Below are positions 6,635-43,687 of a stretch of 43,687 bases of DNA, piece by piece; within the stretch, counting starts at the first letter, position 1; each line of letters opens with the position of its first letter. The stretch is from NCBI GenBank assembly GCA_027596945.1, contig JADGJH010000017.1, positions 1-43,687 on the forward strand. The letters run 5' to 3'. The stretch comes from Physocladia obscura. Lineage: Eukaryota; Chytridiomycota; Chytridiomycetes; Chytridiales; Chytriomycetaceae. The translations under genes were made by a program, and so were the position numbers. The notes below the pieces were generated by a model. It worked only from the letters and a program-made list of their open reading frames with translations, had not been told where the DNA came from and did not search any database.

Positions 6635-7724
6635 ATGGCAACAATTCAAGACCTGCACGACCAATTTGAGAAGTTTTGCGCCTTTGGACGTGGATCAATT
6701 TCAAGTAGTTTGGACAGCATTGCTGGTGGATCAACGATGGACGGCGGAAAATGGGCAAAATTTGCACGAGATTCCAACTTGATTGACAACAAAAAAATCA
6801 CTAGTACTGAGATTGATATTATTTTCAACAAAGTCAAAGCTAAGAATTCAAGACGCATCAACTGGGACGAGTTTTTAAATGGCGTCAAGCTGATAAGCGC
6901 CAAGAAGTATCCGGAACGTCATGTGCACGATGCTTTCACACAAGTCATGTATGATGTCTGTGTCAAGGCACATGGTCCTGTTGCCTCAAATGCAACGGTA
7001 AAACCTTTTTTTTTTCTCTGGTTTTTTATAAATGGCATTGTTTCCAGGCAGTCAAGAACGATGCTGTTCTGGACAGACTTACTAATGTCAGTGGATACGT
7101 AAGTAAATCACAGCTCTTTTCACAATTAAAACTTATCTGTTTTTACACAATAGACCGGAACGCATAAAGCTCGCTTCGACTCTGCTGGGCATGGTCTTGG
7201 TCTTCAAGGACGTGACACTAGCACGAAAACTGACCAATTAAGTAAAATTGTTAACAGAGGTACTGGAAAGTCAGTTGCTTCAATGGCTCCACCCCCTGTC
7301 AGACAGCCTTCAGCAACAGTGACAAAAAGACCAAGTGTCTTAACTAAATCTGAAGAACAGCTGGGTAATTTTTTTCTTTATATTTTCTTTTCTGACCGTA
7401 ATTGCCACAGAAAATATTACCAATTCACCAAAGAAAACGCCAGTCGCAGGCCGTCGTGCAACTCAGGTGTCTGTTAAGTCGAAAAACTATACTACTGCGT
7501 CAACATCGTCGCTCAACAAAAACGCGGCCACGTCAAGTTCAAAAGCAAGCGTCTTTGACAGATTGACAGACAGCAGTGGATACACTGGGGCTCACAAACA
7601 CAGATTCAATGTTGATGGAACCGGGAGGGGAATTGCTGGGAGAGATTTACCGTCTCTTGGATCCGGCCCTGGAACGTACAGAGGTGGCGATGTCAAAAGT
7701 TTAAGTCAAATTTTGAGAAATTAA
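6635..7724 (+). CDS. TPPP: p25-alpha/TPPP-like tubulin-associated protein with duplicated C-terminal module
   Basis: Member of the tubulin polymerisation-promoting protein family, linked to microtubules and, by phylogenetic distribution, to flagella. Exons 6635-6997, 7048-7098, 7154-7364 and 7411-7724 splice to 312 aa. The N-terminal alpha-helical core contains GGSTMDGGKWAKFARD and RRINWDEFL. It is followed by the conserved RLTNVSGYTGTHKARF (about residues 130-146) and the Gly-rich GHGLGLQGR. After a Ser/Thr/Lys linker a second copy appears at the C-terminus: RLTDSSGYTGAHKHRF (about 258-274) and GTGRGIAGR. Two copies of the p25-alpha C-terminal module in one chain are unusual. The gene converges on the first homeobox gene, with stops 127 bp apart. 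Confidence 0.88.
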
Positions 7725-7851: not shown

Positions 7852-9973
7852 TTATTCTTGAGCTCCAATAACTCCATTCATTCCATTTTTCCCACTGCCT
7901 GCAACACAAAGCAGTAATGACGCGGCGTCCAATATTTCCTGTTCCGCATCTTTTTCATGAATTTTCTTGTTGCTTGAAAATGAAGAAATTGACATCGCCA
8001 ATGTTGACGAAAGCGACGAGGATGACAACGACGATATTCCCAGCTCCTCCCAATCATCTTGAACCATCAATCTGCTTTCCATTCCAAACACTGATTCACT
8101 TTCATCACTTAATTTTACAACAACAGTATGGGTAGCATTTGTTTCCACAGTGGTTCTGGATTCATTATTTGTCATCAACTGATTGATGTTTATTGGTCCT
8201 TCACGCGTAGCTTTGCTTCTACGATTCTGGAACCTGATAAAAAATGGATGTACCAAAATAATTACCGCTTTGTAACTAATATAACAAAAAACAATAATAT
8301 AAAAATAATACCAAAGAGTCACAAAATTCACCGGTAGTCCAATTATAAACGCAATCTCGCTTCTTTCAATTTTGCTTGGTCTAACATTTTGCTCAAATTT
8401 CGCCACAAGATAGTCAGTCTGTTCTTTGCGAGGCTTAATTCGCGGACGGACTTCCCCACCGATTTTTGCCATCACTGTCGTCGTCGCCGTTGATGTCAAT
8501 GAATTTTTATTCGCCAAAAAACCAGCTGTGCTGAATGCTTTCGTGATTTTCGCTTCTTTTGTCGGAAGATACGCCGGAAGAATCTGCCGCGGTTGTAGGT
8601 ATTTTTGTGATGGAACAACCATTGGCGGCATAATCACAAGATTTTTATGTTGCTGCACAGACAATGAATTCGGATATTCTTGAATTAAGCCAGGCATTGA
8701 AATATTCATATAATTTTTCGCAGCTTTTCCTATTTGAGGCGGATATATAGGTGGAGAGTGGGCCGATTCCGCGAACATGACAAGCGCATCTTGATTAGTG
8801 TTTGTATGCTGGTGCATCATGTTTGAGCTTTCAGCATTTGCTGCCGCGGCAATTTCAAATGGCTGGCTGTTTACTCTTTCCAAGAAAGGCGTCGTTGCTG
8901 GCGATGAAGCCACTGGAAACTTATGTCGCAAATATCCACCCAATTTCTTTCGTTCACGCGTACCACCACTGAAACCAGCAGCATTGGCCAGAATTTGCGC
9001 TTCCTCTTCTTTTTTAAGCTGCATCCTCTTATTTTGAAACCTATCGTACCGATTCATAAACACATGAAAGTGTTTAATAACAACAATATTAATAAAAATA
9101 TTTCTTCAGTCACCAAATTTGGACATTTCGATACGGAATTCGAATCAATTCGCTCAATGCCTTTTTTTCAGTTCGTGTCGGTTTCTGGCACTTTCGGAAC
9201 GCATTTTCAAGTTCGGCGATTGCCGAACTGCTGATTCTTATCTGCCCCTTTCTACCAGAATACTTATCGCCAAGACCAATAGAAGCAGTAGCAGTAATAA
9301 AAGTAGTCTGGCCAACCATTGGCGTCGATTTAAAGTTTTGGCGTTGCTGGGCGCCACTGGATAGCCATTCTGGTTGCAAAGCAGCAACGTCATTTATATT
9401 TTCGGGTGCTTGAAATTGCTGAAACTGTTGAAATTGCTGACGCTCAAATTGCTGTTGTTGTAGTTGCAGTTGTTGTTGTGGCAGTGCTTGAGGAGGATTA
9501 TGATGCAGTTGTTGATAATAATTTTGGCCATTATGTTGATGATGTGGATTAAAATACTGCGGCGTCTGATTATGGCTGATTTCGCCACCGATGTTGACAC
9601 CACAGCTGCTGTCGTTGTTGTTGCCGCGTGATTTTCTGGTTAATTTTTCTTGAAGAGTTGCAAAAGATATCGAGAAAACTGCTGTTGGCTGAGATGCAGA
9701 CGCGTTTGCGGTAGGCACGATATTATTATTTGATGATGACGAAACAACTGGAGCCACAGCTTGTTGCTGCCGCTGGCGATGCTGGTGGAAAAGCGGCGAA
9801 GGTGAAAAAAAAGGAAAACTTTCGCGTGTGAGTGATGTGAGCGATGCGCAGAGCGCGGATTCTGGCTGACTTGAAATTATACTGTTATCAAAGGGGGTTG
9901 AAGTTTTGCAAAGCATCACTGGCAACACACCCTTGGGAATTTCTGACCTGGCATCTTCGATTTTAGTTGACAT
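7852..9973 (-). CDS. Homeobox gene 1: protein with two homeodomains
   Basis: Predicted DNA-binding transcription factor of 656 aa. Exons are 9973-9114, 9040-8312 and 8233-7852. The N-terminal 235 residues are rich in Gln, Asn and Ser. Homeodomain A (about 240-299) has LIRIPYRNVQIW then FQNKRMQLKK. Homeodomain B (about 483-542) has FIIGLPVNFVTLW then FQNRRSK. Both keep W48, F49, Q50, N51 and R53. Each homeodomain is cut by an intron at the same point, inside the W48 codon (TG|G), so all three exons meet within recognition helices. The C-terminal tail is acidic and Ser-rich (SSLSSSSLSSTL). Neither homeodomain has a TALE-type insertion. Function beyond DNA binding is unknown. Confidence 0.85.
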
Positions 9974-10928
9974 TTCATTCTAACAAAACAAAAAAACAAA
10001 TTAAAGATCGATTGTGATCGAGAAATGAAAAACAAAGACCAATTAAAATAACATAAAAAACCAAAACAGGGTACAATTTTAATTTTTACGACAAATTTGC
10101 AAGAGTACTCTTTTCTGAAACCCAACGCAACTCCAACTTCAAATTTTCAGCAATTTTCAGCAATTTTCAGTCTATCAAGTACACTCTTTTTGCCATATTT
10201 ACTGACCGCTAGGTGATATATTCAAACGGCGGGCTCTGGTAGATTATCACCGTCAGCTATCGACGCGTTTAGTGCCCAGTTTCATCACTTGAACTTTCAA
10301 TTATGCCAATGTTAGCCAAGTAGAATCACATTGAATACACCTTTCTTCCTCCATTATAATAGGCTTACGTTCTGTTACTCGTGTCACTGCTGTCGGTTTT
10401 GTGCCCGTTATTATTAACTTGGTCTGTTTACCATCGAAATTCTTCTTTTGCTTGCTTAGAAGTCATTTAACTCTCCCAACAATTGTAAATTCACACTTTT
10501 AACAAATAATTAGGAACAGAATCACACTGACTTCCAAGCCTGAGAGGTTTCCTTAATTTTTTCATTTTATTAGTCAATAAAACGAGGTCAATTCGGAAAC
10601 ACACAGATCAACTGCAATTAAAAAAAAAAGTGCATGCAAGTCAATTGCGCACTCGAAAATGATAAATTCACCCGCATAAATATCCAATGGTAAATATCCA
10701 ATGGACAAATAACCAGATTTCTCCAATCGACCTCCAACCGAACACTAAAAAAGAAAAAGAAAAGTTCTAAAAGAGAGCATTCAGAAACTAAATGAAGCAT
10801 ACAAGAGTGAGAGAAATAGAGAGAGAGAGCCAGAGAGGTTGAGTTGGAGACGGTAAAAAGGATTTCAAATAAAAATAAAGGACCAGATAAAGAAACCCCG
10901 TTTTTTTTTTCACTTGTTCTCCACCTTT
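9974..10928. promoter_or_regulatory. Largest intergenic gap in the homeobox array (upstream of gene 1)
   Basis: This 955-bp non-coding stretch lies upstream of homeobox gene 1 and downstream of gene 2, so it probably holds the promoter of gene 1 and the 3' end of gene 2. It contains a short direct repeat of ATTTTCAGCA units near 10145-10170 and a GA-rich run near 10808-10840. No RNA gene was recognised. Confidence 0.4.
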
Positions 10929-12388
10929 TCACTGTTCGCTTATCATCACGGTGATTTCAGACACCTCATAGCCAGACAGTGAAACATCAGATATTCCCTT
11001 CTTTGGCTTTGACAGCGGATTTCCTTGAACCTTTGACAGCGCGCGTCGGTTCTGAGAAAAATACCTTGTTTTAGTACTTCCGTTTCTTTTTTATTTTTCA
11101 ACTCCCCCTTCTTTCTTCACCTCGCTAACGCTAATCGCTAGATTACAACTTCTGTTCGTCGCTTGTTTTCTTTTTCTTTCATTTTTTTATATACCTGAAA
11201 CCAAAACTGAATCTGTTTTATTTCCAGACCCATTTTTTCAGCAAGCTTCTTTCGAATAGTAGAGCTAGGATATGGATTCTTGGTAAATACGGCTGTAAGA
11301 AGTGTCAGCTCGTTCTCATTTGGCTTGAATCTCGGGGGCTTGGCAATACCTCCGCCATGCGAACCTGGCAGCATAAAATGATGTAGATATTGCTGCTGAG
11401 GCTGCTGAGGCTGCTGTGGCGTTGTAGAAGCAATATGCTCATTGAATGGCGAGCGAGGAGGAGACGTTGGGCTTGGAAGGGAAGGCTCAATGCTATGGTG
11501 GCTATGGTTGTGAGTAACAACCGGCGAGCGCGGGCCAAAGTGCAAGAAAATAGGACTACGAGCCTCGGGATACGCAGATGAGTATGAGTCGAGCGGCCGT
11601 TGCTGTTGGTGCTCGAGTTGATGTTGCTGATTTAATTGGGGAAAGTAGGATATTCGCTGAGAATTATATAGGTCGGGGATTGGCAATTGCATTGAACCGG
11701 CCAATGCTTGCGGGTGAAAAGATTCTAAGGAAGCGTTGAAGAAAGCATTATGAGGCTGCAAAGTCGCGGCAGTCGTGTTCGGACACAGGAAAGTGTTGTC
11801 TATGAGGGGCTGCATATTTTCTCTGCTAATATTGTAGTTGCTGCTGTTGTTGCTGTCTTTGACGGAGTTATACATGGCGTTATTGCTGATATTGTTATCG
11901 TTCCTTTGCAGCAAATTTGTGTTGGAGTAATTGCGGCTATCGTCTGAATAAGAACTGAAGGTGCGATAGGAATCAAAAGCCGAAAAGACTGGCCGCACAG
12001 GGCTAGCAAAGCCGAGACCAGTCAGCGCCGGCGATGGACTGAAGCCGCGAATTGATGCCGTTGCGTGCATTGTTGCTGTTGCTACTTGCGGCTGTGTGAG
12101 TGTAGTGTGTGTGGGCAAATTTGGCGAAAACATAAACGGCATTATTCCATGGCACAGACTATTGTTCTCCAAACTGTTGATACGTGATATACGTCTGCCG
12201 AAACGGCTTTGACTGATGTCATTGTTGCTGCTGCTGTGGTCGTTGTTGTTATAGCTCGAGTTGTTGGTGTCATTATAATTGCCGGGGATTGAATTCTGGC
12301 GACGGTGATGGCGGCTGGCCGGCAGCACTTCCATTACAACGTACGGAGGTACGGTGTTCGCCATTACTGTTGTTGATGAGGATCTCAT
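10929..12388 (-). CDS. Homeobox gene 2 (subfamily with genes 3 and 4)
   Basis: Predicted homeodomain transcription factor of 438 aa, from exons 12388-11195 and 11051-10929. A long disordered N-terminal region is rich in Asn, Ser, Gln and Pro. The homeodomain (about 349-408) starts PPRFKPNENELTLL, continues KNPYPSSTIRKKLAEKMGL and ends in KQIQFWFQ then NRRALSK. The single intron is phase 0 between Q50 and N51. Right after the homeodomain the chain reads VQGNPLSKPKKGISD, matching the tails of genes 3 and 4. The position-50 residue is Gln. The ATG at 12388 gives the longest plausible chain; the exon-2 reading frame ends 40 codons after the junction. Confidence 0.84.
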
Positions 12389-12757
12389 GGTGTGGGGGGA
12401 GTGGCTTTAGAACGATTCAGCAACAACAAAATTTCACAATCCAAAAAAGTTGTAGAATTACCAGCGTAAAAAAAAAACAGTCTTTATTTGCCTGCAAAAG
12501 ACTTCTTATCAGCGTATGTCCAAAAGTTGCCGTGGAGCCCAGCCCCATTCCACAACATGCAAAGAAACAATCAAAAAAAAAAAGGAAAGGGAGAAAAAAA
12601 CACAGAATAGAAAACGAAAAACGTTATAAATGCTATGGAAAAAGACTTGGTTGCCCTGGACATAGAGGAGATCCCGCTCCTAAAATACTTCGGTAGTATT
12701 GCAAAAGTATATGAACAAAAAAAGTAATCAAAAAAAGTGGAAAAGGAGGCCCGTGAT
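12389..12757. promoter_or_regulatory. Intergenic region upstream of homeobox gene 2
   Basis: A 369-bp gap between the start of gene 2 and the stop of gene 3. It contains several A-rich runs (near 12466-12478 and 12574-12602) and no ORF that looks real on either strand. The promoter of gene 2 and the 3' end of gene 3 are expected here. Confidence 0.35.
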
Positions 12758-14075
12758 TTAGAAAGAAGCCTCTTCAGTAGGTTGATTAGAGCTTTCGACA
12801 AAGAAATACATGCTAGCAGTTGAAAGTGGAGAAAGGGATGGACGCTTCTTGAGAGTGGCTGAAGATCCGGACAGCCGTCTTTTTGTCGGCTTGAGAACGT
12901 ACACCCCGTTAACTTTTAGCGTTTGCCGCTTGTTTTGAAACCAAAACTGAACCTGAGATGAAGAAAATAATATAAATATTTCATCCCAAAGCACGAAAGG
13001 AGTTGAAGAGGGGAAAGCTTATCACCTGCTTCACATCAACAGACATCTTTTCGGCCAACTTATTTCTCAATGCAACACTTGGAAACGGGTTCTTTTGAAA
13101 AATCTCACTCATCAAGGCGAATTCCTTTTCAGTAGGTTTGAATCGCAAGGGCTTACTCGAACTGTCAATAAATGTTCGCCGAGCCACAACATTTGCTGGA
13201 GAGAGAGTTTCACAATTGAGCACAAGCTCCATACCAGGCTCCATCGATTCATTAAATCCCACTGCACTATCTTGTTCTTCTTTTGCTTTATCGGTGGCGG
13301 CTGCAACACGGAATTTTTCGGCTTCAAAATTTTTTTTTGTGTCTACTGTGGCTGATAATGCTGAAGGGAGAGGAGACGAAACGGTGGCTGATGTTTGAAA
13401 TGGCATTACTGATGGCATTTCCAATGAAGCTGAACGACTTCTATTGGACAAGTTACTGGAAACCGGTGACGGAAAAGAGTACCCAGAATCATTTTGTGGC
13501 AAAACTGTCGGGAAAGCAAAAGACTGTTGGTTCTTCAGAAATTGGTGGCTGAGCGCGTTGCCATTAATACAGTAGTAATTTTGCTGTTGTTGCTGCTGTT
13601 GGATTGCAACATCCCATTGGATTTGGGAATATGTTTCATGGGGAGACTGTGAAACAAACATACTTTGCGAATTTTTTTGTCCACCAGCCAAAGACCCTGG
13701 GATAGGAACAGAGTAATTGACGGAAGCAGGCATCGAGACACGACGCATAAACGTGGACAAGTTGGCTTGTGTTGCTGATGAAAGCTGAGCTCTTGATACA
13801 GACAATCTCGCTGATATTGGCAACTCGTTTGGCGATAATGAGGCGAGCAGCGGATACGCTGGAACTGCAACTGGCACTTGTACTTGACCAGTCTGCAGCT
13901 CGTTACCGTTTAATCCAATGTGGTTGTTTCGCATCCCGTCACTGTAGATCTGTTGTAGCTGATGATTCCAATCCATACTTGGTTGTTGCATCTGCATATT
14001 CATGCTCATATTAATTGCCGGATGGGAGAATCTCCGGTCCAGCATATACAACAGCGTCGCGTCATTAGAATTCAT
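12758..14075 (-). CDS. Homeobox gene 3 (subfamily with genes 2 and 4)
   Basis: Predicted homeodomain transcription factor of 414 aa from exons 14075-13026 and 12952-12758. The N-terminal 300 residues are rich in Gln, Ser and Met, with a poly-Gln run. The homeodomain (about 307-366) has LRFKPTEKEFALM, KNPFPSVALRNKLAEKM and VQFWFQNKRQTLK. The intron is phase 0 between positions 44 and 45 (VKQ|VQF), a site different from every other gene of the array. The tail starts VNGVYVLKPTKRRLSG, equivalent to the tails of genes 2 and 4. The close match in homeodomain and tail, with a different intron site, makes this a key gene for reconstructing the duplications. Confidence 0.84.
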
Positions 14076-14559
14076 GTTGCTCGCAGTAAAGTGTCTTTCC
14101 CTCTTTTTTCCTACTTTTTTTTCTTTCTATCCGGTCCCAAATTGAAATTGAAATTTCCATCATATAACCCTAAGTTCCAGAAACCTCCAACAAAATCTGT
14201 TTAGCAATTACCGAAAAATGAAGTCAAAATAAATTTAAAAGATGAATTTACGATAATATAGCCAGAAGAAATTAAAAGGAATGAAAAAGTCACTTTTGAC
14301 TTTTGAACTTGCATCACTTGACCAAGCTCAAAAAACAAAATTAACTTTCTTTATTAAATTTCACTGAGGTACTGAGCAAAATACAAGAATATTTGAATAT
14401 TAGAAAATGTGACCTGATACTTTAAGGTATGCCATTCGTTTGTTCCATAGAATGTTTGTCATCGGTTCACTGTCAGTCGACAAAAAATTTCATTAAGAAA
14501 TTTCCTTCTGCCCACCAACAATAGTGGATAAATTATGTCAAAGCCAAATTATTAAATCG

Positions 14560-14575
14560 ATATATATATATATAT
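14560..14575. repeat. (TA)n microsatellite
   Basis: Eight uninterrupted TA units upstream of homeobox gene 3. Confidence 0.9.
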
Positions 14576-14806
14576 GTGAATGGCAAACGCTATATTAACC
14601 ATGATCTTATCATTTCTTACTGAATATCCGAAGCCACGTCGAAAATCACTTTTGAAAAATTGACAGATGTATTTGGGTGGCGGACGGCATTACTTTGCAG
14701 CACGATTTCAATGTATAATTGTTTTTATTTTGCAAGATAGCGCTGAAAAAAAAAGTTCGGAGTAAATATGCTCTAAATCGAAACCACAAAAAAAAAAAAA
14801 AAAAAG

Positions 14807-14842
14807 TGCATGTATGATTGTGCGCGTATGTATGATTGTGCG
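14807..14842. repeat. 18-bp tandem direct repeat, two copies
   Basis: TGTATGATTGTGCG occurs at 14811-14824 and again at 14829-14842, an 18-bp period, directly after a poly-A run. Confidence 0.85.
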
Positions 14843-14850
14843 TGCATATG

Positions 14851-14948
14851 TGAGACACAGAGAGACAGAGACAGAAACAGAGAAAGAGAGATAGAGAAGA
14901 AAAATAGAAGGAAAGCATGACAGAGAAGGGGAAAGAAAGTGAAAGCAT
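14851..14948. repeat. GA-rich purine tract
   Basis: About 100 bp dominated by GAGA and GAAA units on the plus strand with very few pyrimidines. It lies just downstream of homeobox gene 4; on the gene strand it is a CT-rich tract. Confidence 0.8.
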
Positions 14949-15017
14949 TGCAAAACAAAACAAAAAACACAAACACACACAGGAGAAAAACAATAACACA
15001 AACAAATATAAAAAAGG

Positions 15018-16377
15018 TCATTTCTTTTTATGTGTGCAAACGCTGATCGCCTGTTGAGTTTGTTCCAATTCCACGTTGTCAGGAACACGTGCTGCATCGG
15101 CAACATAAAAGAATGGGTTTTCTGTGGATAATGGCGCCATTTTCTCAAGATGTTTTCCTTTGTATATTGTTGATGTAAGGCCATTCTTCTTCGGCTTGAC
15201 TGCAAGAATTCCGTTGGATTTTAACGTCGCACGACGATTCTTTTCATTATGATTTTTATTGTAAGTATATATAGACATATATATATTACTCCTTTATATT
15301 TACCTGAAACCAAAAGAGAATCTGCTTGGGGTCCAAATTCAACTCGTTCGCAAGCTCAAAACGCTGCTTCGTTGTCGGGAACGGATTGGTTTCAAAATAT
15401 TTAAGCAGATATGTCAACTCGGCTTCTGTTGATCTGAATCGCATCTTTTTTGGCTTTCGCGTCTTTTTTGACATCTGCACTGTGACTTTTACTGCTACCG
15501 CTGGTGTTGCTGTAATTACTGCTGGTGTTACTGCTGATATTTTATGCACTTCACTAATACCATCATCACCGCCGCCGCTAACACCGCTTTCTTCAGCTTT
15601 CACATGGTTGGAATCCACAGATGCCAGGATTGCTTGCGCAAACACTTGCTTTGGAGAAAAAGAAGATACCGCCGGGGGTGTTAACGATTCTTGAGCGGGG
15701 GTCATCGGGTGCTGATACTGCTGCTGCTGTTGATTTTGATAGAAGTGATTCTCTTGAAGATGTTGAATAAATGGACTACTGTAGATATGCTGGTGGTGCT
15801 GGTTGTTATTGCTGCTACTGTACATGTGCTGCTGCTGCTGCTGTTGCTGTTGCTGCTGTTCGGATAATGATAGAGGATAGATATTTGAGGCTTGGGCCAG
15901 TGCAGAAGATGAGTCGGACGAGAAATCTGGAGTAGAATCAAACGGGCTTTGGCTCATGATGTATTCGAGTGAGGAAGAAAGAGACGGAAACGGCTGCGCT
16001 TCGAGTAGCGAGCAGCAGTTTTCCATGGGTGACAGAGTGCCGTTCGAGTAGACAACAGTGGACGAAAAGAGAACAGACGGGTCGATACCACTGTTACTGT
16101 TGCTGTTACTACTGTTGTTGTTTTCGCTGTTGTTGTCATTGTTGTTGTTGTTGGTAACGTTGGTGGTGTAGTATGGGCTGCATTCCATTTGAGCGGCGAA
16201 GGATTGGTTCAGATCGCCGAGAATTGGCACGGTTGAAACTCCGACGCCGACGCCGTGAAACGCGGCGAATGCAGGAGAAACACACATATGGCTGATGTGG
16301 TTGTGCAACTCGCTGATCTGCGATTCTGCGCTGTCGTTTTGCTGCTGTTGCTGCTGTTGCCGTTGCTGATGATGCAT
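15018..16377 (-). CDS. Homeobox gene 4 (subfamily with genes 2 and 3)
   Basis: Predicted homeodomain transcription factor of 431 aa from exons 16377-15304 and 15239-15018. The protein opens with a poly-Gln run right after MHHQQR and has further Gln, Asn and Ser tracts. The homeodomain (about 309-368) contains MRFRSTEAELTYLLKYFE, NPFPTTKQRFELANELNL and KQILFWFQ then NRRATLK. The intron is phase 0 between Q50 and N51, as in gene 2. The tail begins SNGILAVKPKKNGLTS, aligning with genes 2 and 3. The 3' exon adds about 65 further residues, ending in a Lys-rich terminus. Confidence 0.84.
15828..15860. repeat. CTG/TTG repeat coding for poly-Gln in homeobox gene 4
   Basis: Eleven consecutive Gln codons (CAG and CAA mixed) on the minus strand. 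Mixed codon use suggests selection on the protein tract rather than fresh CAG expansion. Confidence 0.85.
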
Positions 16378-16698
16378 CTTGTTCTGAAAGGAAAAAAGTG
16401 GCCGCTAACAAAATAGATTTTTTTTTCAAAGTCCTTGCGCCGAACCGGAACGACCAAAAGGCTAGACATTTACTCATTAGCAGGTGATTTTCTGAAAATA
16501 TGCATTTTGATAATAATAAACCTGAATCAAATCAAATCACTGGCCATCTAATCTGACGAAATGCTCTCTCCTGTTCATTTGTGTATAAATTGCTGGAAGA
16601 CACCTCCAGACAAAAAAATTTTTAATTTTTCGTTGGGTTTTATAAACTGCTAAGAGTAAAAATTCCAAATAGTCATTGTTTAATCCATGTATTCTTTT
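16378..16698. promoter_or_regulatory. Intergenic region upstream of homeobox gene 4
   Basis: A 321-bp AT-rich gap between the start of gene 4 and the stop of gene 5, with no ORF or RNA gene that I can support. Confidence 0.35.
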
Positions 16699-17800
16699 TT
16701 ATTTCCTCTTTGATGCATTTTTCGAGTCAGATCTTCTTTTTTTAATCAGTGCCCCTTGAGTCCGCATCCGTTGCCGTTGATTTTGAAACCTTCACAGAAA
16801 AAAAAAATTTTTTTTTCAGGTAACAAGAAAAAATAAATTAATCAAAAAATCAAAATCAAAAAAAAGTAAATAAATAAATGCTAATAAGAACTAACCAGAC
16901 TTTAGCATGCTTATATCCCATGCCACCACCAACAGCTGCCGCAATATTCTCTAGCTGAACCTTCTTCGGAAACTGATTCTCCGTAAAAGCTTCAGTCAAA
17001 TATTTCAACGATTTCTCATCACACTTAAATCTTTTGTTCTTGTGTTTCCACCCTTTTCTGCGTTTTTTATTCGGCAAATTTTGCTCACTCATGCTGCAGA
17101 TACTCCCGGAATCATAGACGATTTGTGGTGAATTGGTCGGGGTGCAAACTACCGACGACAATACTGCTGATATTGGTACTGTAGTAATTTTTGTTGCTGT
17201 TGGTTGCGGTGACGGCTGCTGCTGCTGTAGTGGCACAGCGGCATAAAAACGGTCATCGAGAAAAAGTCTACTCGGCACGTCTTGCACAGGAAACAGAGAA
17301 AACGTGGAATACATGAGTGGCGAAACTGGAGCAGAATGGAGTGGGATACCAATGTTTTCAAATCCCTTTAGAATTTTTTCAAAGGAGAATATTGATGAAG
17401 AAGATTTGGGTTGCTGTTCGTCCTTGTACGGTGGAGCTTGTGTTATGAAGATTTCGTTGGGTATGCCAGTTTCACTATTATTGTTGCTGTTGTTGTTGGT
17501 AGTGGATGTGGCAGTTCTAAATTTGGACCACTCTTGTATATCATCAACCTTCATATCCTTTGCAATGATTGTTGCGTCATTGTATCTTGCGTGTTGGAGC
17601 TGATGATGATCTTCTTCATCTTCTTCCTGATTTTGCTGCTCGAGCGTGTAGAGGAGTTTGTCAAGCGCATCCCAGTGGGGTCCAGGTTGCTCCACAGGTA
17701 CCTTTTCGAATGCTTCAAAGAAACTTGCCAGCATTGCGTTTGAGATAGGTGAAGGGAGCTTATAGCTACTTTGGAGTTGCTGAAGTGGTCGGCTCTGCAT
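16699..17800 (-). CDS. Homeobox gene 5, homeodomain with two extra residues before helix 3
   Basis: Predicted homeodomain transcription factor of 331 aa, the shortest of the array. Exons 17800-16896 and 16789-16699 splice inside the W48 codon (TG|G), restoring KVWFQNQRQRMR. A basic stretch KKRRKGWKHKNKRFK precedes the homeodomain and could serve as a nuclear localisation signal. The homeodomain (about 253-314) contains FTENQFPKKVQLENIAAAV followed by GGGMGYKHAKVW. From the conserved F20 to W48 I count two more residues than in the other genes, so the turn between helices 2 and 3 is longer. The chain ends in a Lys/Arg-rich tail. The intron contains an A9T10-type palindromic run near its 3' end. 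Confidence 0.82.
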
Positions 17801-17984
17801 TGCTTCTCCAGATGCTTTTTTTCTCTTTGCTTTTTTCTACTCTTTTCTCTTTTTTTTTCAAGGGAAATTCTCATTTTTCTCAGGTTGAGCTCACTAAATA
17901 GACTGAGATTGTTTGAGTCAGCCAAACACTTAGCAAAGAACCAACTTGTTATTGAACACAAAAAACAAAAGCAAAAAAAATCAA

Positions 17985-19271
17985 TCAAATCAAAGCATCG
18001 ATTCTCATCACAGACGACCGAGGTACTGAATTGGTGTTGCAAGTATAGCTAGTTACATCATTTGCGTTGCTCTTATTTTCCTCGTTCGCATTCACCACAA
18101 CAGAATTATGCTGAAACTCTGAAGTATCGCGACTGTGTCGTGTGGAATCCGCGTATGATTGATGTATTGGCAGTAACAGTGGTGTGCACTGTAGTTGTTG
18201 ATAATTACAACGGTGATTCTGAATCGGAAAAAACGGCGGTTCCATTTGCCCATATGGCGGAGGTGGTGGTCTAGAGTAGTGTCGGTGCTGTTGAGGCTGT
18301 ACTGAATGAGTGGGATGTAGTTGAGAAGCGGGCATTTGATAATTGTGATGACGGTGATTATAATAGTGATGGTTTTGAGCCGGCAGAGGAGTTTGATGCC
18401 GATGAATTTGGTACTGTTGAGAAGAAAACTGAAGGTTGAATGGAATCGGTTGTGCTGCGTAATTGTTAACATTTGAGGCAACATGGGAAGGCGGGTATCT
18501 TGAATCAAAAGAACTCAAGTTAGAACCGAGATTCGAGCCAACATCCGAAAACGAGTCAGCACGTGGAGGATAGTTGTACAGGCGGCTGTTGTTATTATTT
18601 TTTGGCGCGGCTTGAATATGGGCTTGCTGGACTTGGGCTTGTTGCGAATGGGCTTGTGCTTCCATTTGCAGTCTGCGGGTTTTGGCGCGCTGGTTCTGGA
18701 ACCAATTGCGGACGGTGCTCCTGGTCATGCCGATACTGTCGGCGATTGCACTGTGCATTTGACCCGAAGGCATCTGGTTCTCGGCAAAGATCTTCTGCAG
18801 GACTTTAAGCTGGGCCTTTGTGGCTCTGATTGTGCCGCTTGTGGGCGGAGCCAAGAAGCGTTGCGATGTGGAAGAAGAGGCTGAAGAAGCTGTAGTTTGA
18901 TTGAGCATACACGGAACACTGGTAGTACCAGTAACAATAGTAGTAGCAGTAGTAGATGTGGTATTCGAAGTGGCAAGCAAACCCAACGCGCTTGGCGGAG
19001 GAGAGAGCAGGTGCTGGGTTCGAGCCCGGCCTTCGTCAATGCTGTGTGCGTCTTTGCCATTGTTCGCGGTACCCCTGACTGTGCCGCTGTCACTGAAACT
19101 GCCTTCGTCTTTCCAAGAATCAGCCGCCCACCGATTGTTGGGGTTCGATTTTCCCATGCCCATCTCCCTCTGCCTCTCCCCGTCTTCCTCTCCATCTTTC
19201 TTTGCCACATGTTCGTCTTTAATTACCAACGTCTCTGTCGAGTTACGTCGCCGTCTCTCAACGTCGACCAT
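17985..19271 (-). CDS. Homeobox gene 6, intronless
   Basis: Predicted homeodomain transcription factor of 428 aa from one exon. I start at the ATG at 19271 (MVDVERRRRNSTE). The frame stays open further upstream to 19445, but that adds a hydrophobic stretch that does not suit a nuclear factor. The homeodomain (about 143-202) contains IRATKAQLKVLQKIF, NQMPSGQMHSAIADSIGM and VRNWFQNQRAKTRRLQ. Unlike most neighbours it is near the N-terminus and has no intron in helix 3. A long C-terminal region is rich in Gln, His, Asn, Pro and Tyr. Loss of the intron by reverse transcription or independent origin are both possible. Confidence 0.84.
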   Translation of the reverse strand: MVDVERRRRNSTETLVIKDEHVAKKDGEEDGERQREMGMGKSNPNNRWAADSWKDEGSFSDSGTVRGTANNGKDAHSIDEGRARTQHLLSPPPSALGLLATSNTTSTTATTIVTGTTSVPCMLNQTTASSASSSTSQRFLAPPTSGTIRATKAQLKVLQKIFAENQMPSGQMHSAIADSIGMTRSTVRNWFQNQRAKTRRLQMEAQAHSQQAQVQQAHIQAAPKNNNNSRLYNYPPRADSFSDVGSNLGSNLSSFDSRYPPSHVASNVNNYAAQPIPFNLQFSSQQYQIHRHQTPLPAQNHHYYNHRHHNYQMPASQLHPTHSVQPQQHRHYSRPPPPPYGQMEPPFFPIQNHRCNYQQLQCTPLLLPIHQSYADSTRHSRDTSEFQHNSVVVNANEENKSNANDVTSYTCNTNSVPRSSVMRIDALI

Positions 19272-19550
19272 GACAAAAAATGTTTTAATTTCAAATGTCT
19301 CAGCGTCAATCAACCATCGTTTGGCTTGGGCTTGAAGCGAAAAAAAAATAACACAAGCCTGCCAATGAATCTTCTGTTTGCCAAGAAACCCAAGAAACAG
19401 AAAGGCAAAATCAAATGAAACGAACAGTGATGGAGATAAGCTCATGAATCCCTTTTTCTTTTCCCACTCAGAAAAGAAAACAATGTTCCATCATTTAACA
19501 GCCTCCCTTGTTTTCTTTTAATTTTTTTTTAATTTATAAAAAATATTTCA

Positions 19551-21470
19551 TCAAATTGCTGTCACTTTCCGCTTCTCCACTGCCCTCCGATTCTGAAACC
19601 ACACCCGCACTTGTCTTTTATCCATCCCAACAACTGCACTAATCTGCTCCATTTGCTCACTCGATGGGAACGGCGTCTCTTCAAACACTTTCTTCAACCA
19701 CTTCAGGTGCTCTCGCGACATTATGAACCGCTTGCTTTTTTTATAGTCTGCTCCTGCATTGTTGTTGTTGCCGCTGCCATGATTATTGTTGTTGCCATTA
19801 TTCCTGTTATCGCTGCTGTCGTTGCTGACAAGACTATTTGAACCCCCCGCCGTTAACGATCGTTTAAAACGGTTCTTTCCATTATTATTGTTCCCGTTGT
19901 TGCTGTTGTTGTTACTGCCGCTGACTCCTACCACACTCGCAAAGTTTGTTGACAGTTTTGTGTCCATACTGAACCCACTAACATAGCTGTTGTCAGATCC
20001 CGGGCTGTTTGGACCTGATATTCTCGCATAGTCAGTTAATTTTCCACTTCCATTTAGCGGTGTTGCTGATGATGATGACTGCTGGTGATTATGATAATGC
20101 TGCTGTTGCTGCTGCTGTTGCTGATAATGATATTGAAGCGATGCAGGCGTGGCAGGCAAGTGGCTGTTATATTGTGCAAATGAATCTGTGCCATGCTCTA
20201 CTTTGGAAGCGAAGGATGATGGCGGCGGTTGTTGTTGAAATCCTTGGACTTGCGATGGGACAATTGGCTGGTGGTTGTTGTGCCTTTGTTCGCAATGAAG
20301 ACTCGACATTGGTGGGTACTGGTGGTGATTTGGAAAACTGCTAATTGGTGGTAGCACTGGCCGTGACGACGACATCAGCATTGAAGAAGACGTAGGTGGC
20401 GATGTCGAAATTTTTCTCAAATGATCCGGAAAATTTCGGCTTCTGGCAGGCTCTGACCACTCCAAGTAATGTGAATCTTGGCGATAGTACCGAGTGGCAG
20501 CATATGTTTCTGGCTCGTTCGAGTTATTGCCGGTGTTGTAGTAGTGGTGTTGATGTTGGCCTTGTTGAGAAACAGCACTAGTCGCGTCATGCAAGGGGGG
20601 AAGAGTAGATTCATTGTCACCGTCATCATTCACTGAACTTGAATATTGGCCATTCATCATTATAGAAAGGGGAGGCGGAAGTCTTGTTGACACTTGAATT
20701 TGATCCGCCGAGTAAGAGTTGACTGGCGTCAAAGAAACATCATGCGTGGTTGAGGTTTTGTCATTCAACTGTGTGGGTGGCGGAAGACGGATTCCAGAAA
20801 TCGGCGGACTACTTGGACCAAGCTGAGGAAAGTGCAACCCGTTTTCAGAACGCATTCTTTGAAACCTGTCCAAGAATTTGAGGTTTATTTTATTTTTTAA
20901 GACAGTTTTGCTGAAGATTAATTGGGAGAGGGTTTCAGAATTTTCGATTTTTTTTGAAGCCAAGACTTTTTGATAGCACTTTGTCTTTTGGAAATCATAT
21001 TGGTTGATCATTGGAGGGGCAATAGGCAAGAAAATAAACACGTACCACATGGTCAATGAATATTCCGAGAGATCTAGTTTAGCAGCAACGCTCTTTAACG
21101 CATCATGAGATGGAAATGGAGTTTCTTCAAAAACCCGAGCTAGCCAGCTCCAATCATTATCCTTCCTCTTACTGATAGCCGGGCTTGCGAGCGAAGTAAA
21201 GTCCAGTCGAAGATGATTATACTGCTTTTGCATTTTATGAGCATCGTAGAAAATATTTGCTGGTGCGGATGTTTCGAAATTGCGTGTGTCTCTGCTGTCG
21301 CTGTTGTGACTGTTGCTGTTGTTGATGCTGAAACCATCAGTATTAATACTGCTGCTGATGTTTTCTGGATCCGCCCTGACATCGTGCGCAGTGATTCTTG
21401 TTGTTGGGCTCTGGTGCGAAGTGATGAGCAGCTCCTGAGAAGCTGCTGCTAGTAACGCAAGTGCATCCAT
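19551..21470 (-). CDS. Homeobox gene 7: two homeodomains, first one degenerate
   Basis: Predicted transcription factor of 579 aa from exons 21470-21046 and 20865-19551. Homeodomain A (about 95-154) has WLARVFEETPFPSHDALKSV and SLTMW then FQRMRSENG after splicing in the W48 codon (TG|G). Here position 51, normally an invariant Asn that contacts adenine, is Arg. Homeodomain B (about 517-576) lies at the very C-terminus, is uninterrupted, and has WLKKVFEETPFPSSEQMEQI and VRVWFQNRRAVEKRK. The shared VFEETPFPS suggests internal duplication. Between them lie about 360 residues rich in Ser, Pro, Gln, His and Asn. The intron is 180 bp, a multiple of three, and has no in-frame stop, so unspliced RNA would also be translatable. 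Confidence 0.82.
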   Translation of the reverse strand: MDALALLAAASQELLITSHQSPTTRITAHDVRADPENISSSINTDGFSINNSNSHNSDSRDTRNFETSAPANIFYDAHKMQKQYNHLRLDFTSLASPAISKRKDNDWSWLARVFEETPFPSHDALKSVAAKLDLSEYSLTMWYVFIFLPIAPPMINQYDFQKTKCYQKVLASKKIENSETLSQLIFSKTVLKNKINLKFLDRFQRMRSENGLHFPQLGPSSPPISGIRLPPPTQLNDKTSTTHDVSLTPVNSYSADQIQVSTRLPPPLSIMMNGQYSSSVNDDGDNESTLPPLHDATSAVSQQGQHQHHYYNTGNNSNEPETYAATRYYRQDSHYLEWSEPARSRNFPDHLRKISTSPPTSSSMLMSSSRPVLPPISSFPNHHQYPPMSSLHCEQRHNNHQPIVPSQVQGFQQQPPPSSFASKVEHGTDSFAQYNSHLPATPASLQYHYQQQQQQQQHYHNHQQSSSSATPLNGSGKLTDYARISGPNSPGSDNSYVSGFSMDTKLSTNFASVVGVSGSNNNSNNGNNNNGKNRFKRSLTAGGSNSLVSNDSSDNRNNGNNNNHGSGNNNNAGADYKKSKRFIMSREHLKWLKKVFEETPFPSSEQMEQISAVVGMDKRQVRVWFQNRRAVEKRKVTAI

Positions 21471-21668
21471 CGAAAACTCGGTTTTTTTCTTTGTTTTGTT
21501 GTTTGCAATCAAATTTTTTGAGTGCAATGCAGTATTCAATGAAGCTAACAGGGCCTTAAGTAGGGAGCAATAGTTTATTACTACTTTTATTGTTTTATCG
21601 TGAAAGTACCAAGGAAAATGAAAGTAATAGGAAAAAGAGAAAAAAAAATATTGATACAATCGTTCAAA

Positions 21669-22851
21669 CTATTGACTGGCTTGACGTCGTTTCATTTGGG
21701 CACGTTGGTTTTGGAACCTAACACAAAAACAAAAAAGAATCAGACAATACGCGTGAAATATATACACACCCATACACACCAAATTCTGACTTTTCGCTGA
21801 TCCAATCCAATTCTTCGTGCAACATCAGTAAGTTTCTCCAACGACGGATATTGAGTCTGTTCTAAAACTTTCTTTAAGATAGTCTTCTGGTCTTTTGCCA
21901 GTGACAAGCGTGAGCAATTTTTTGATGATTTTTTGGGTTTTCCGCCAGCAACAAAAGAATACAATGTATCGTTGCTGTTGGTGTATTCTGCATTGTCGGC
22001 GCGATTGGCAATCTTCGCACCACCATCATCGCCATCGTCACAAATATTCGTGCAAAAACTATCACCCATGATCGAGTCAGAAACAAAATCCGCATCATTG
22101 GCATTTTTCGCAATTCGCATTCCAAAAAAACTTCCACACCCACCGCCATCATTAATCCGATCTCGCCATCTCTTTTCACTATTTTCGCCGTCATCATCGT
22201 CCCCTTTCATCGAATCCGCAAAATCAGGTAAAAATAATTCAACCTGGTCATTTTCGTCGTTTCTGGCCTTCTGGGATGGGGATCTTATCACTGCGGATGT
22301 TTTTTGAAGGGATGTATTTGGTGGTGGTGGCGGTGGTGATTCGCGCGGAAGCACATCAGAAGATATTGTTGTCGTTGGAATCGATTGAATGGTAAAATAT
22401 TCTGGCTGCGGTGCTATTGGCAGTGTATTATATTGCGGAAACGTGTCGACAGTGTTGATATTATTTCTGCTACTGCTTTCGCTTGGACTTAATAACGGTG
22501 CAGAATTAACACAAAAATTTTGTTGTTTTTGCTCTTTTTGATAGAGTTGGCGTTGGCATTGAAGCGGTTGTTGGTGCAAATAGTTGAATCCAGCTCCAAA
22601 TATTGTACTATTTATAGGATTGACGCTTCTGCCGCTTGAGGGGTTTGAGAGGTTTTTGTGCAGTGAATTTCGAGTGTGCGATTGGGAAAATGGTTGCTGT
22701 TGTTGGATCAAACGGGGATGATTTTGGAAGTTTAAAATTTGTTTACGTAATGAAAACTGATTAAAATTGTAGAGTTGCTGCTGCTGCTCTAGTTGATGCT
22801 GATGTTGATGCTGGGGTTCTAAAAAATGAAGGTTGTTAAACTTAGTCGAAT

Positions 22852-22882
<31 letters not shown>

Positions 22883-23272
22883 CTGTTGGAATAAAGTGGT
22901 GAAGTTGGGTGCAGCAAATATGTCAGTAGCAGTGTTTGTGGCGGCGGAGAATCCTGCTGTGGGTATGGGACGTCGGATTGCGTACGCGTCCAAATACAGC
23001 TCGTCGAATAATAAGTCGAATGGATCATGACTATTCGGTACCGACATTGGCATATATGTATCACCGCTGGCCGTTATCGGAAATTGAACAGTGCTAGTTT
23101 CAGAAGTGGCGAAGAAGGAATCGTCGGAAAATGCTGGTGATTTTGGCAGCATTGGCTGTTGATGTGTTGGTGCTCTTCTAGCCATGCCGTATTCGACTGG
23201 CATGCATATCGTCAAATTCTGGGCTATTGCCAACGTTGCTTTTTGATCGCGTTTATGTTGAGACTTTTGCAT
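21669..23272 (-). CDS. Homeobox gene 8, homeodomain at the C-terminus
   Basis: Predicted homeodomain transcription factor of 513 aa from exons 23272-21780 and 21717-21669. The second exon is only 49 bp and supplies FQNQRAQMKRRQASQ and the stop. The intron again splits the W48 codon (TG|G). The homeodomain (about 451-510) has LSLAKDQKTILKKVLEQ, TQYPSLEKLTDVARRIGL and KVRIWFQNQRAQMKRR. The N-terminal 400 residues are rich in Gln, Asn and Ser, with a 12-codon poly-Gln run and an acidic stretch before the homeodomain. I chose the ATG at 23272; an upstream frame extension has only a TTG. It is the 5'-most gene of the array. Confidence 0.83.
22853..22889. repeat. TTG repeat coding for poly-Gln in homeobox gene 8
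   Basis: About twelve Gln codons on the minus strand, nearly all CAA with one CAG, in the disordered N-terminal region of gene 8. It is the purest trinucleotide run in the window. Confidence 0.88.
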
Positions 23273-41300: not shown

Positions 41301-42960
41301 TAATGCATGATTCCTGGTTTGATGAGCAGATTCAAGTGCTGAAAATCTGTTGTTTTTTGGAAGGCTTTAGAGATGTTGAACCTTAAGCTTGATAGTAGTT
41401 TTGGGTAGAGAGCTCTTTATTTTTAGGATGTTTTCAAAAGTCAAAATCCAACAGCCTTCTTATAGCTTTTTTTAATGCTTATTCAGCCCATTTCAAATTC
41501 CCCATGATTTCAGTTGATTGTTTGATTTCAAACTTTGGAGTCCTTTCTTTAGAAAATGTTAAAATTCCATGACCAGTGGCAACAGTCTGGAATAATTCCC
41601 TACCAAATATAAATAATTCATTTATTCTGTGTATAATATATAAGAATTAAAATACAAAGCTTCATTAAAAATTTTGAATTCAAGTTCTAATCATAACTGA
41701 GAGGCTCTAACAATTGACAGAGGCCATCTACAGTGGTCACCATACTGAAATAACGTGTAAAGATAGTAAAGTACACAAGAAGTTTTATATACAATATTTC
41801 TGAATGTTTTTCAGCTGCCTTATTAAACAGCTACTGTTTATCATTGAGTCATGTAACATATATACATGTATTTAGAGACTCTTTCTGAACTTGTTATACA
41901 TATATGAGCCCTCAGCTTGTGTTAATAACAAGAGTAACATTGTAATGATAAAAGGGATGAATAAAACTGTAGTTTTGGCCAAAGGCACTATTGGTACATC
42001 AGCTCACACTGCTGTCATGGTACTCTGTGCAATGTGCCACAATGGGCTATAAAAATAGAAATATTTTTATTATTCATTCACAATTAATGCTAGCAGATGC
42101 TAAATAGCCAGAAATGACTCTGTATAAATTGTATGCACTTGCAATGCCATCTTGAATGTCCCACAAGTGATGGATTGATAAGCAAGTTGGAAAATTTGCA
42201 TGAAAAAATAGAAAAATTGGTGCCACCTGTGTGCCTCTTACATAGTCTTGATAGGGGCCACAGCTGGTATCACCAAAAATGCAAAATAGAGCATTTGCCT
42301 CTTAGCTAAGATGCCAGGTGACCAATCAAGCCAAGACCACCAAGATACTGAAAAATGTATAAAAATTGTTGGTTTCTTTTCTGAAATAGTCATAAAAAAA
42401 AATATATTATTCATCTCTAAAACCCATTGTTACATACAGCAAATCAACAAAAAACATCCAAAAAACAGCACAAGTTCCGAAAATTAGGTGCCAGGCTTGT
42501 ATTGCTACTTCTGCTGCCACAACTTGGCTGTGTTAGCATGTAATGCAGCCATCAGTGAACATGTGTGGGTAGTTTGTTCAGCACCTTGTTGTCATTGTCA
42601 GTGTTTCACAAATGTAGCTGCTTAAGGTCTATATCAAAAAACAACTTTATTTTACACAATGTTTGCAATCTATGTTACAATTGTATGTAGTCAGGATTTT
42701 TGGTAAAAATTATTTTTCTTTATTCAAGATTTTCATTTTCCAAAATCCCCTGACTTCAATTATAAAACCAATCAATATTTTTCACTGTTCCTGACCGCAT
42801 AAAGCATCTATTTCATTATATATAATTACATTCCAGCTTAAGCTTAATGACAGAATGGCGCAAGGTTGATTTCCACTGTTGAAGTTGATTTTGAATACCT
42901 TTTCTTAAATAAAGATTCAAGTTCATCTAAATTACAGCTTTAATTCATTCTACCTTCAAC
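41301..42960. other. AT-rich non-coding region with no supported gene
   Basis: Over 1.6 kb without an ORF of note on either strand, with many short A/T runs. It lies downstream of the copia fragment in that element's orientation and may hold its 3' LTR and older insertions. I found no RNA gene. Confidence 0.5.
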
Positions 42961-43245: not shown

Positions 43246-43687
43246 TCAATTTTCATGATTTTTAACTGCCAAAGCTTTTGTCATTCCATCTGCCCACATA
43301 TCTTCTGTTCCTACTGCAACCAATTCTATGTGTTTCTTCTTTAGATGATCTCTAATAAAGATTTCCTTAACCTCAACATGCTTCATCATGATTTCTTTAA
43401 CCTCAACATGCTTCATCATCTTGTGATGTATTGGGTTTATTGCCACTGCAATAGTTGACAAGTTATCTTGTGCTATTTTAGTTGCATCTTCTATAAGATA
43501 ACCAACTACTTCTAACACTTGTCTAAACCATAATGCCTCCTTAATTGCTTCAACTAATGCATAATAATCAGCTTCTGTAGATGATTGTGCCATCACAGAT
43601 TGTTTTCTATTATACCATGATACTATTGCATTTGCAAGGAAAAATACATATCCACTTCAGGATTTTCTTTCTTTTTCCATTGCATAA
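43246..43687 (-). mobile_element. Degenerate Ty1/copia retrotransposon, RNase H end of pol
   Basis: The open part 43596-43246 encodes the copia-type RNase H: QSSTEADYYALVEAIKEALWF, then a DNLSTIAVAINP segment, and WADGMTKAL near the end. Upstream the frame continues through SGYVFFLANAIVSWYNRKQS, but a TGA at 43659-43657 interrupts it where these elements usually have KSTSGY. A 30-bp in-frame tandem duplication repeats MMKHVEVKEI. The rest of pol lies beyond the right edge. The element is therefore old and, as seen here, not able to make an intact polyprotein. Confidence 0.85.
43361..43420. repeat. 30-bp tandem duplication inside the copia RNase H
   Basis: Units 43361-43390 and 43391-43420 differ at two bases. 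The duplication keeps the frame and adds ten residues next to the conserved H-K-H segment. Confidence 0.9.

What the first reader, a model, noticed from the sequence alone, without database searches (positions are those of the whole stretch)
7852..23272. Eight tandem homeobox genes (ten homeodomains) on one strand: a Hox-like array in a fungus
Eight consecutive minus-strand genes, with nothing else between them, each encode a non-TALE homeodomain with the W48-F49-Q50 core. Fungal homeobox genes are, to my knowledge, usually dispersed, apart from paired HD genes at mating loci of basidiomycetes, which are divergent pairs rather than a same-strand array. A long tandem array with strong sequence divergence looks like an old local expansion. 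Its biological role (cell-type or life-cycle programme, mating identity, or simple gene birth) is open.
Basis: partly seen in the sequence, partly recalled or inferred. Interest (0 to 1): 0.9.

Follow-up and report, generated by a model that had tools for sequence, protein, structure and literature searches.

The report
Hox-like homeobox cluster in a chytrid
The chytrid fungus Physocladia obscura carries eight homeobox genes side by side on one strand, and the gene catalogues of related chytrids list similar genes in consecutive runs, so this is likely an old fungal cluster of predicted gene switches that grew independently of the animal Hox genes.

Summary
Window 7852-23272 encodes eight consecutive minus-strand genes (G1-G8) with ten homeodomains. 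All ten keep W48-F49-Q50; nine keep Asn51 and G2's first domain does not.

The organism is Physocladia obscura (Chytriomycetaceae). The array is not unique: the assembly has a second six-gene array (C989), and relatives list the family in consecutive locus tags (33 of 65 members outside Physocladia lie within two tags of another). One Obelidium contig holds G2-, G8- and G6/G7-type genes.

New here is the architecture outside the homeodomain in G5/G6-type proteins: RRxSxP sites (76 in 48 of 90 proteins; shuffles at most 3) and a C-terminal LSPLS...YFFV motif, predicted in two models as part of three strands after helix 3.

It is Hox-like by analogy only: no hexapeptide was found, and class and expression order were not tested. 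Most likely tandem duplication made a family of transcription factors, some likely phospho-switched, that would set life-cycle stages (inferred). Caveats: linkage in relatives rests on tags and contig lengths, and the assembly holds diverged duplicates of some housekeeping genes.

The parts
21669..23272 (-). G1, 513 aa, one homeodomain at the C-terminus (exon 1 part 21779-21913); 62-base intron at W48
   Evidence: relative near one end of contig C872
19551..21470 (-). G2, 579 aa, two homeodomains: the first (Arg in place of Asn51) split by a 180-base intron at W48, the second at the C-terminus (19569-19739)
   Evidence: two-domain relatives in Rhizoclosmatium, Siphonaria, Chytriomyces and Obelidium, second domain 78-89% identical
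17985..19271 (-). G3, 428 aa, no intron, one homeodomain (18672-18824), C-terminal tail SVMRIDALI
   Evidence: relatives D4 on C989 and HDU79_010777
16699..17800 (-). G4, 331 aa, one homeodomain with two extra residues between helices 2 and 3; 106-base intron at W48
   Evidence: it was no row's best match among the chytrid domains
15018..16377 (-). G5, 431 aa, one homeodomain (15304-15450 plus exon 2) and C-terminal APLSTENPFFYV motif; 64-base intron after Q50
12758..14075 (-). G6, 414 aa, RRxSxP sites at residues 14 and 111, one homeodomain, C-terminal LSPLSTASMYFFV motif; 73-base intron between residues 44 and 45
10929..12388 (-). G7, 438 aa, one homeodomain (11171-11338 in the Pfam scan); 143-base intron after Q50; no RRxSxP and no LSPLS/YFFV motif
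7852..9973 (-). G8, 656 aa, two homeodomains (9113-9253 and 8308-8448, each continued in the next exon); introns of 73 and 78 bases, both at W48
   Evidence: Obelidium 850711 has both domains at 60% and 72% identity

Best explanation
This is a tandem array of eight homeobox genes in the chytrid Physocladia obscura, belonging to a homeobox family that the gene catalogues of related chytrids also list in consecutive runs; it likely grew by repeated local duplication, and its proteins are predicted to be DNA-binding transcription factors that would set successive life-cycle stages. Shown: the genes, their strand and order, the ten homeodomains, a second array on C989 with a close relative of G3, the runs of locus tags in relatives, purifying selection on two homeodomain pairs, and conserved motifs outside the homeodomain. 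Predicted: a homeodomain fold for a G6-type and a G5-type relative, followed by three short strands. Inferred: G6-type proteins are likely phosphorylated at RRxSxP by a PKA-like kinase and bound by 14-3-3, which would gate their action; the M-x-I-D-A-L-I tail of G3 likely docks a Groucho/Tup1-like co-repressor; domains without Asn51 likely no longer bind DNA in the usual way and may act as competitors. The stage role is inference from the usual work of the family and has no expression evidence here.
For: Gene models and domains. Organism and whole contig. Relatives: 88 of 117 hits and 13 of 26 hits are chytrid proteins, Physocladia included; the six species that I looked up are all Chytriomycetaceae. 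Runs: 40 of 72 members in 11 sequentially tagged genomes lie within two tags of another, 33 of 65 without Physocladia; random placement among 10,000 genes per genome gave mean 0.29 and maximum 6 in 1,000 trials for all 72. Obelidium contig of 726,426 bases: a G2-type, a G8-type and eight genes whose best match is G6 or G7. G7-type next to G6-type: window, a 7,272-base Physocladia contig, HDU81_002311/002312, HDU77_010862/010861, and HDU98_009653, one gene model holding both. Tree: G7 group 100/92, G8a pair 100/95, G8b pair 100/100, G3 group 99/89. Selection: G3/D4 dN 0.09-0.10 with dS saturated by NG86 and 1.96 by LWL85 (70 codons); G1/C872 dN 0.11-0.13, dS 0.76-1.38 (65 codons); YN00 failed for both. 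Motifs: RRxSxP 76 times in 48 of 90 proteins, shuffle mean 0.34, maximum 3 of 200 shuffles. Models. Tail: the coding pattern occurs three times in 21.76 Mb, in G3, D4 and a C602 homeobox gene; control 0.
Against: No expression, binding or phosphorylation data. RRxSxP is absent from window G5 and G7 and from 42 of 90 proteins; the 90 are related, so the shuffles overstate significance. The kinase, 14-3-3 and EH1 readings rest on recalled consensus motifs; G3's tail misses even the loosened EH1 pattern that I ran. No upstream word exceeded shuffles, so no common control was found. G4 was no row's best match. Runs in relatives rest on locus tags and contig lengths, not on DNA; 32 of 65 members outside Physocladia are not within two tags of another.
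Confidence: 0.55

Rival explanations
1. A birth-and-death array: duplicates arise and decay, and most members have little selected function; only a few (such as G2, G3, G5-G7) matter.
For: Asn51 is lost in G2's first domain, D3, D5 and the three C602 domains; G4, D1 and G2's first domain are very long branches; whole proteins are only 38% (G1/C872) and 48% (G3/D4) identical although their homeodomains are 83% and 88-89%.
Against: dN well below dS in the two pairs tested; two-domain G2 and G8 types are found in other genera; open frames with clean introns in all eight genes.
Confidence: 0.2
2. A mating-type locus in which homeodomain proteins set sexual identity.
For: Homeodomain genes set mating type in basidiomycetes (PMC2866331, passages); one search listed four papers and I saw no chytrid mating locus there (listing; passages of one).
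Against: The strong TALE hits (68-70 bits) lie on C222 and C131, not in the window; the array is on one strand, with no divergent HD1/HD2 pair. No second isolate was available, so idiomorphs were not tested.
Confidence: 0.08
3. Not exclusive with the first: part of the multiplicity is an assembly effect. A hybrid, polyploid or mixed culture has two diverged genomes, so that the second copies of G1, G6 and G7, and perhaps C989, come from a second genome.
For: Chaperonin contigs C115/C276 are collinear in four blocks at 75-85% DNA identity and C686/C384 at 85% over 2.5 kb; the G6 and G7 copies sit on a separate 7,272-base contig.
Against: It does not touch the window array, which is on one contig. 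MCM shows 5-6 loci and RPB2 two, without doubling; the coiled-coil flank ORF is single in held contigs. Base composition is alike, which is weak, since a relative would look alike too. Other chytrids have runs as well.
Confidence: 0.4
4. True relatives of the animal Hox cluster, kept from an opisthokont ancestor.
For: Same-strand tandem array of non-TALE homeodomains; nearly all of the 60 PDB rows shown for the homeodomain profile are animal homeodomains, as expected of what has been solved.
Against: No hexapeptide by pattern in the eight proteins or in 103 chytrid proteins. The G4-G7 query found plant and basidiomycete proteins outside chytrids, no animal ones; the second query found some animal ones. 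No tree with animal classes was built.
Confidence: 0.02

Closest known systems
Animal Hox and other homeobox clusters
   Same: Tandem, same-strand run of related non-TALE homeobox genes, with linked relatives in other genera.
   Different: No hexapeptide found; class, regulation and order of expression untested; likely independent origin.
Basidiomycete HD1/HD2 mating loci (PMC2866331, passages)
   Same: Fungal homeodomain genes side by side.
   Different: Those are divergently transcribed pairs of two classes; this array is on one strand and has no strong TALE hit.
Encephalitozoon cuniculi homeodomain gene clusters (PMC2866331, passages)
   Same: Clustered homeodomain genes in an early fungal lineage.
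   Different: Six genes in three clusters there; eight in one array here, and six in another.
Podospora anserina homeobox genes (PMC3360767, abstract start and passages)
   Same: Fungal homeodomain transcription factors with developmental roles.
   Different: No tandem array is described in what I saw; the word 'cluster' does not occur in the main text.
Plant HD-ZIP IV and basidiomycete HOCHOB proteins
   Same: Sequence hits of the G4-G7 query: 26 plant and three basidiomycete rows of 117.
   Different: Pfam on 44 G5-G7-type relatives gave only the Homeodomain and KN models, plus DUF4679 in two; no START or HOCHOB domain.

Membership tests
Homeodomain, non-TALE | Three-helix homeodomain with W48, F49, Asn51, Arg53 | tested here: met
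TALE homeodomain | Three-residue extension of loop 1 | tested here: not met
   No insert there in the ten window domains; G4 has two extra residues between helices 2 and 3. Against: PF05920 also passes its cut-off of 24 bits for G7, G2 second and G5 (32.1, 28.6, 26.3 bits), but PF00046 scores them higher (49.8, 63.4, 44.9).
Basidiomycete HD mating locus | Divergent TALE/non-TALE pair | tested here: not met
   All eight genes on the minus strand; the strong TALE hits are on C222 and C131.
Basidiomycete HD mating locus | Allelic idiomorphs between isolates | not testable with these tools
   One assembly of this species at hand.
Animal Hox cluster | Tandem same-strand homeobox array | tested here: met
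Animal Hox cluster | Hexapeptide N-terminal to the homeodomain | tested here: not met
   None in G1-G8, none in 103 chytrid proteins by pattern.
Animal Hox cluster | ANTP-class placement in a tree | not tested
   The tree held chytrid rows only.
Animal Hox cluster | Expression order follows gene order | not testable with these tools
   No expression data at hand.
EH1 (Groucho-binding) motif proteins | FxIxxIL-type motif | tested here: inconclusive
   With a loosened pattern, D3 (MSIAFLL) matched; G1-G8, D1, D2 and D4 did not, so MRIDALI of G3 and D4 missed it. The Rhizoclosmatium tail MSIDALI was not run. Consensus recalled.

The most novel reading that the evidence does not exclude
A second, independently evolved Hox-type system: a family-wide chytrid homeobox cluster whose members carry a new composite DNA-binding module, a homeodomain with a C-terminal beta extension, plus RRxSxP phospho-switches, and whose ordered use runs the zoospore-germling-thallus-sporangium programme.
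Probability: 0.25. Interest if true: 0.93.

Novelty: new variant of a known kind. Interest (0 to 1): 0.72.

Why it matters
Clustered homeobox genes are usually discussed in animals. A fungal family with repeated homeobox clusters gives an independent case for asking why such genes stay together: shared control, recent duplication or chance. The cluster also brings a protein architecture outside the homeodomain that Pfam does not describe. It is directly testable: Rhizoclosmatium globosum, which has two relatives on one contig (BCR33DRAFT_711640 and 711645), already has a published stage-by-stage transcriptome (PMC8887899; passages read; 'transcription factor' does not occur in its main text).

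Tried and rejected
The held genome gave no near-identical match to HK100_003989, so at least that 7,272-base contig is missing from it. Duplication of the whole window region: the flanks of C872 (poly(A) polymerase-like, M48 peptidase) do not match the window's flanks. Shared promoter words: none above dinucleotide shuffles. Literature, where I saw no array of this kind, by listings unless said: homeobox + chytrid, 35 of 35 listed; 20 of 25 listed; Physocladia obscura, 1 paper; 10; 0; 0; 4; 20 of 26 listed; 6; passages of PMC5415576, PMC10406608, PMC3360767, PMC2866331 and PMC8887899. The library holds open-licence papers only. No row reaches past the homeodomain by more than two residues; the C-terminal strands were not folded or searched alone, so nothing is claimed about a new fold. 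The tree has 119 rows on 68 columns and few resolved forks; C163, G2's first domain, D1 and G4 are long branches whose place is unsure. Of 113 chytrid domain rows, seven rows of five Physocladia proteins were left out of the tree because my own models stood for them, three rows without W48 were left out (HK100_003990, the first domain of HDU98_009653, HDU80_011019), and eleven identical rows were merged (130 to 119). The second model's alignment shares rows with the first, so it is not an independent repeat.
Full report
What was checked. The window is contig C17, bases 1-43,687, of a 21.76 Mb, 1,222-contig set. Its proteins are in the databases as Physocladia obscura HK100_002930, 002931 and 002933 on a contig of 43,687 bases, so the window is that whole contig. 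P. obscura is a chytrid of the Chytriomycetaceae. I built eight gene models on the minus strand; each is open from ATG to stop, and all eight introns (62-180 bases) have GT-AG ends. The genes occupy 15,421 bases with gaps of 184-955 bases. They hold ten homeodomains. All ten have W48-F49-Q50; nine have Asn51 and one (G2, first) has Arg.

Not alone in this genome. Pfam's homeodomain model gives 27 exon hits in the held contigs: seven in the window array, six on the 11.9 kb contig C989 (all plus strand), three on C602, two on C99, one near an end of C872, and eight singles. The scan did not list G4, G6 or G2's first domain, so totals are lower bounds. C989 carries six genes, D1-D6. D4 is a close relative of G3: it shares a SPPPSALGLLA stretch, 88-89% of the homeodomain and the tail SSVMRIDALI. 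C872 has a relative of G1 with 83% homeodomain identity. A 7,272-base contig, not in the held set, has neighbours HK100_003989 and 003990, relatives of G6 and G7. Selection on the G3/D4 and G1/C872 homeodomains is purifying (dN 0.09-0.13; dS 0.76 to saturated; YN00 failed).

Caution on copy number. Two chaperonin genes of the CCT kind sit on contig pairs that are collinear at 75-85% DNA identity, while MCM and RPB2 show no such doubling. The assembly may hold two diverged genomes in part: hybrid, polyploid, or mixed culture. The second copies of G1, G6 and G7 may belong to that second genome. The window array itself is on one contig and is not affected.

Relatives. One search with the homeodomains of G4-G7 joined gave 117 hits: 88 chytrid (three of them Physocladia), three basidiomycete, 26 plant. 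A second with G1, G2 second, D2 and both G8 domains gave 26, of which 13 chytrid; the rest were metagenome and animal rows. No DNA of these relatives was available, so linkage was read from locus tags and contig lengths. In 11 genomes with sequential tags, 40 of 72 members lie within two tags of another (33 of 65 without Physocladia); random placement among 10,000 genes per genome gave a mean of 0.29 and a maximum of 6 in 1,000 trials, run for all 72. The other 31 of the 103 chytrid proteins are from genomes whose tags I did not treat as sequential. Examples: Podochytrium 007488-007492, C. confervae g07806-g07809 and g08384-g08386, Siphonaria 007334-007337, C. hyalinus HDU81 002311-002313 with 002306, 002315 and 002316 on the same contig. 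On one Obelidium contig (726,426 bases) lie a G2-type two-domain gene, a G8-type two-domain gene and eight genes whose best match is G6 or G7; how close together they lie there is unknown. A G7-type next to a G6-type recurs in the window, the 7,272-base contig, two C. hyalinus isolates and Podochytrium, where one gene model holds both. The tree groups G7, G8a, G8b and G3 with their relatives with good support; G5 (81/80) and G2 (89/94) are weaker.

Protein architecture. In 44 aligned G5-G7-type relatives the part before the homeodomain is poorly conserved (mean majority 0.29, homeodomain 0.71) but holds LLDRRFSLP and RRMSLP stretches; after the homeodomain comes NGIHVLKPKK and then LSPLSxxSPYFFV. 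RRxSxP occurs 76 times in 48 of 90 proteins against a shuffle mean of 0.34 and maximum of 3. G6 has two; G5 and G7 have none. By recalled consensus this fits PKA (RRxS) and 14-3-3 (RxxSxP) sites; that reading is inference. AlphaFold2 models of the G6-type P0005 and the G5-type P0009 give a confident homeodomain (blocks of the three helices 87-97) followed by three short strands, the last two in the LSPLS/YFFV motif (block pLDDT 72-91 and 79-88), with a weak linker between the first and second strand (54 and 58-69). Pfam finds in the 44 nothing beyond the Homeodomain and KN models, apart from DUF4679 in two.

G3 type and domains without Asn51. The codons for M-x-I-D-A-L-I-stop occur at three places in the held genome, G3, D4 and a C602 gene, with none for the reversed pattern; the Rhizoclosmatium relative ends IMSIDALI. 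It recalls the EH1 co-repressor motif, but MRIDALI misses the loosened pattern that I ran, and the Rhizoclosmatium tail was not run. Six of the 27 Physocladia domains in my set lack Asn51: G2 first, D3, D5 and three on C602. In G2 relatives the first domain has Asn51 in Rhizoclosmatium, Siphonaria and Chytriomyces, and Asp in Obelidium, so the loss in G2 looks secondary.

Mechanism. Shown: genes, order, motifs, selection on two pairs, recurrence by tags. Predicted: fold of two relatives. Inferred: local duplication as the source, DNA binding by the Asn51-bearing proteins, gating of G6-type proteins by phosphorylation, co-repressor docking by G3, and a role in life-cycle stages. No shared upstream word was found, so common control is not supported by this test.

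Comparison. It shares with Hox clusters the tandem same-strand arrangement; it lacks the hexapeptide, and class and expression order were not tested. It fails the defining pair of the basidiomycete mating locus. Microsporidia have small homeodomain clusters (PMC2866331, passages). I saw no report of this array in the searches listed under Tried and rejected.

Verdict. A real homeobox array, one of a recurrent chytrid kind, with a protein architecture that Pfam does not hold. New variant of a known kind; interest 0.72.

Noticed in passing
C989 (L009, L021): Second homeobox array of six plus-strand genes, beside a frame that reads like a CDP-alcohol phosphatidyltransferase (my reading, not scanned).
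   Followed up: partly
C602 (L011 4612-7421): Three homeodomain reading frames that lack Asn51 (WFRKRR, WFRKRR, WFRQKR); one ends RPFIMSIDALI and one RPFIMSVAALL (my reading of the DNA).
   Followed up: partly
window 7852-12388 and 17985-19271: Public gene models fuse G7 with the first half of G8 (HK100_002931) and shorten G3 (HK100_002933, 295 aa against 428), which hides the array in gene lists.
   Followed up: yes
C115/C276 and C686/C384 (L041-L044): Diverged collinear duplicates of chaperonin genes at 75-85% DNA identity; hybrid, polyploid or mixed genome.
   Followed up: partly
L015 and L016: C51 and C383 carry near-copies of one homeobox gene, 79.6% DNA identity over 1,410 bases.
   Followed up: no
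window 41553-42748 and 43249-43656: Stretches matched at 78% on C131, and 42663-42748 also at 81% on C163; the second range has a reading frame that looks like the end of a copia-type retroelement (my reading).
   Followed up: no
P0127, P0131, P0134: Metagenome proteins hit by the homeodomain query that also carry PF15943 (P0127 also PF13384) labels; source organism unknown.
   Followed up: no
window 18672-18824 and the G5-G7 homeodomains: G3-type domains read NWFQN with Asn at position 47, G5-G7 types FWFQN with Phe at 47; both unusual by recall, so DNA preference may differ.
   Followed up: no
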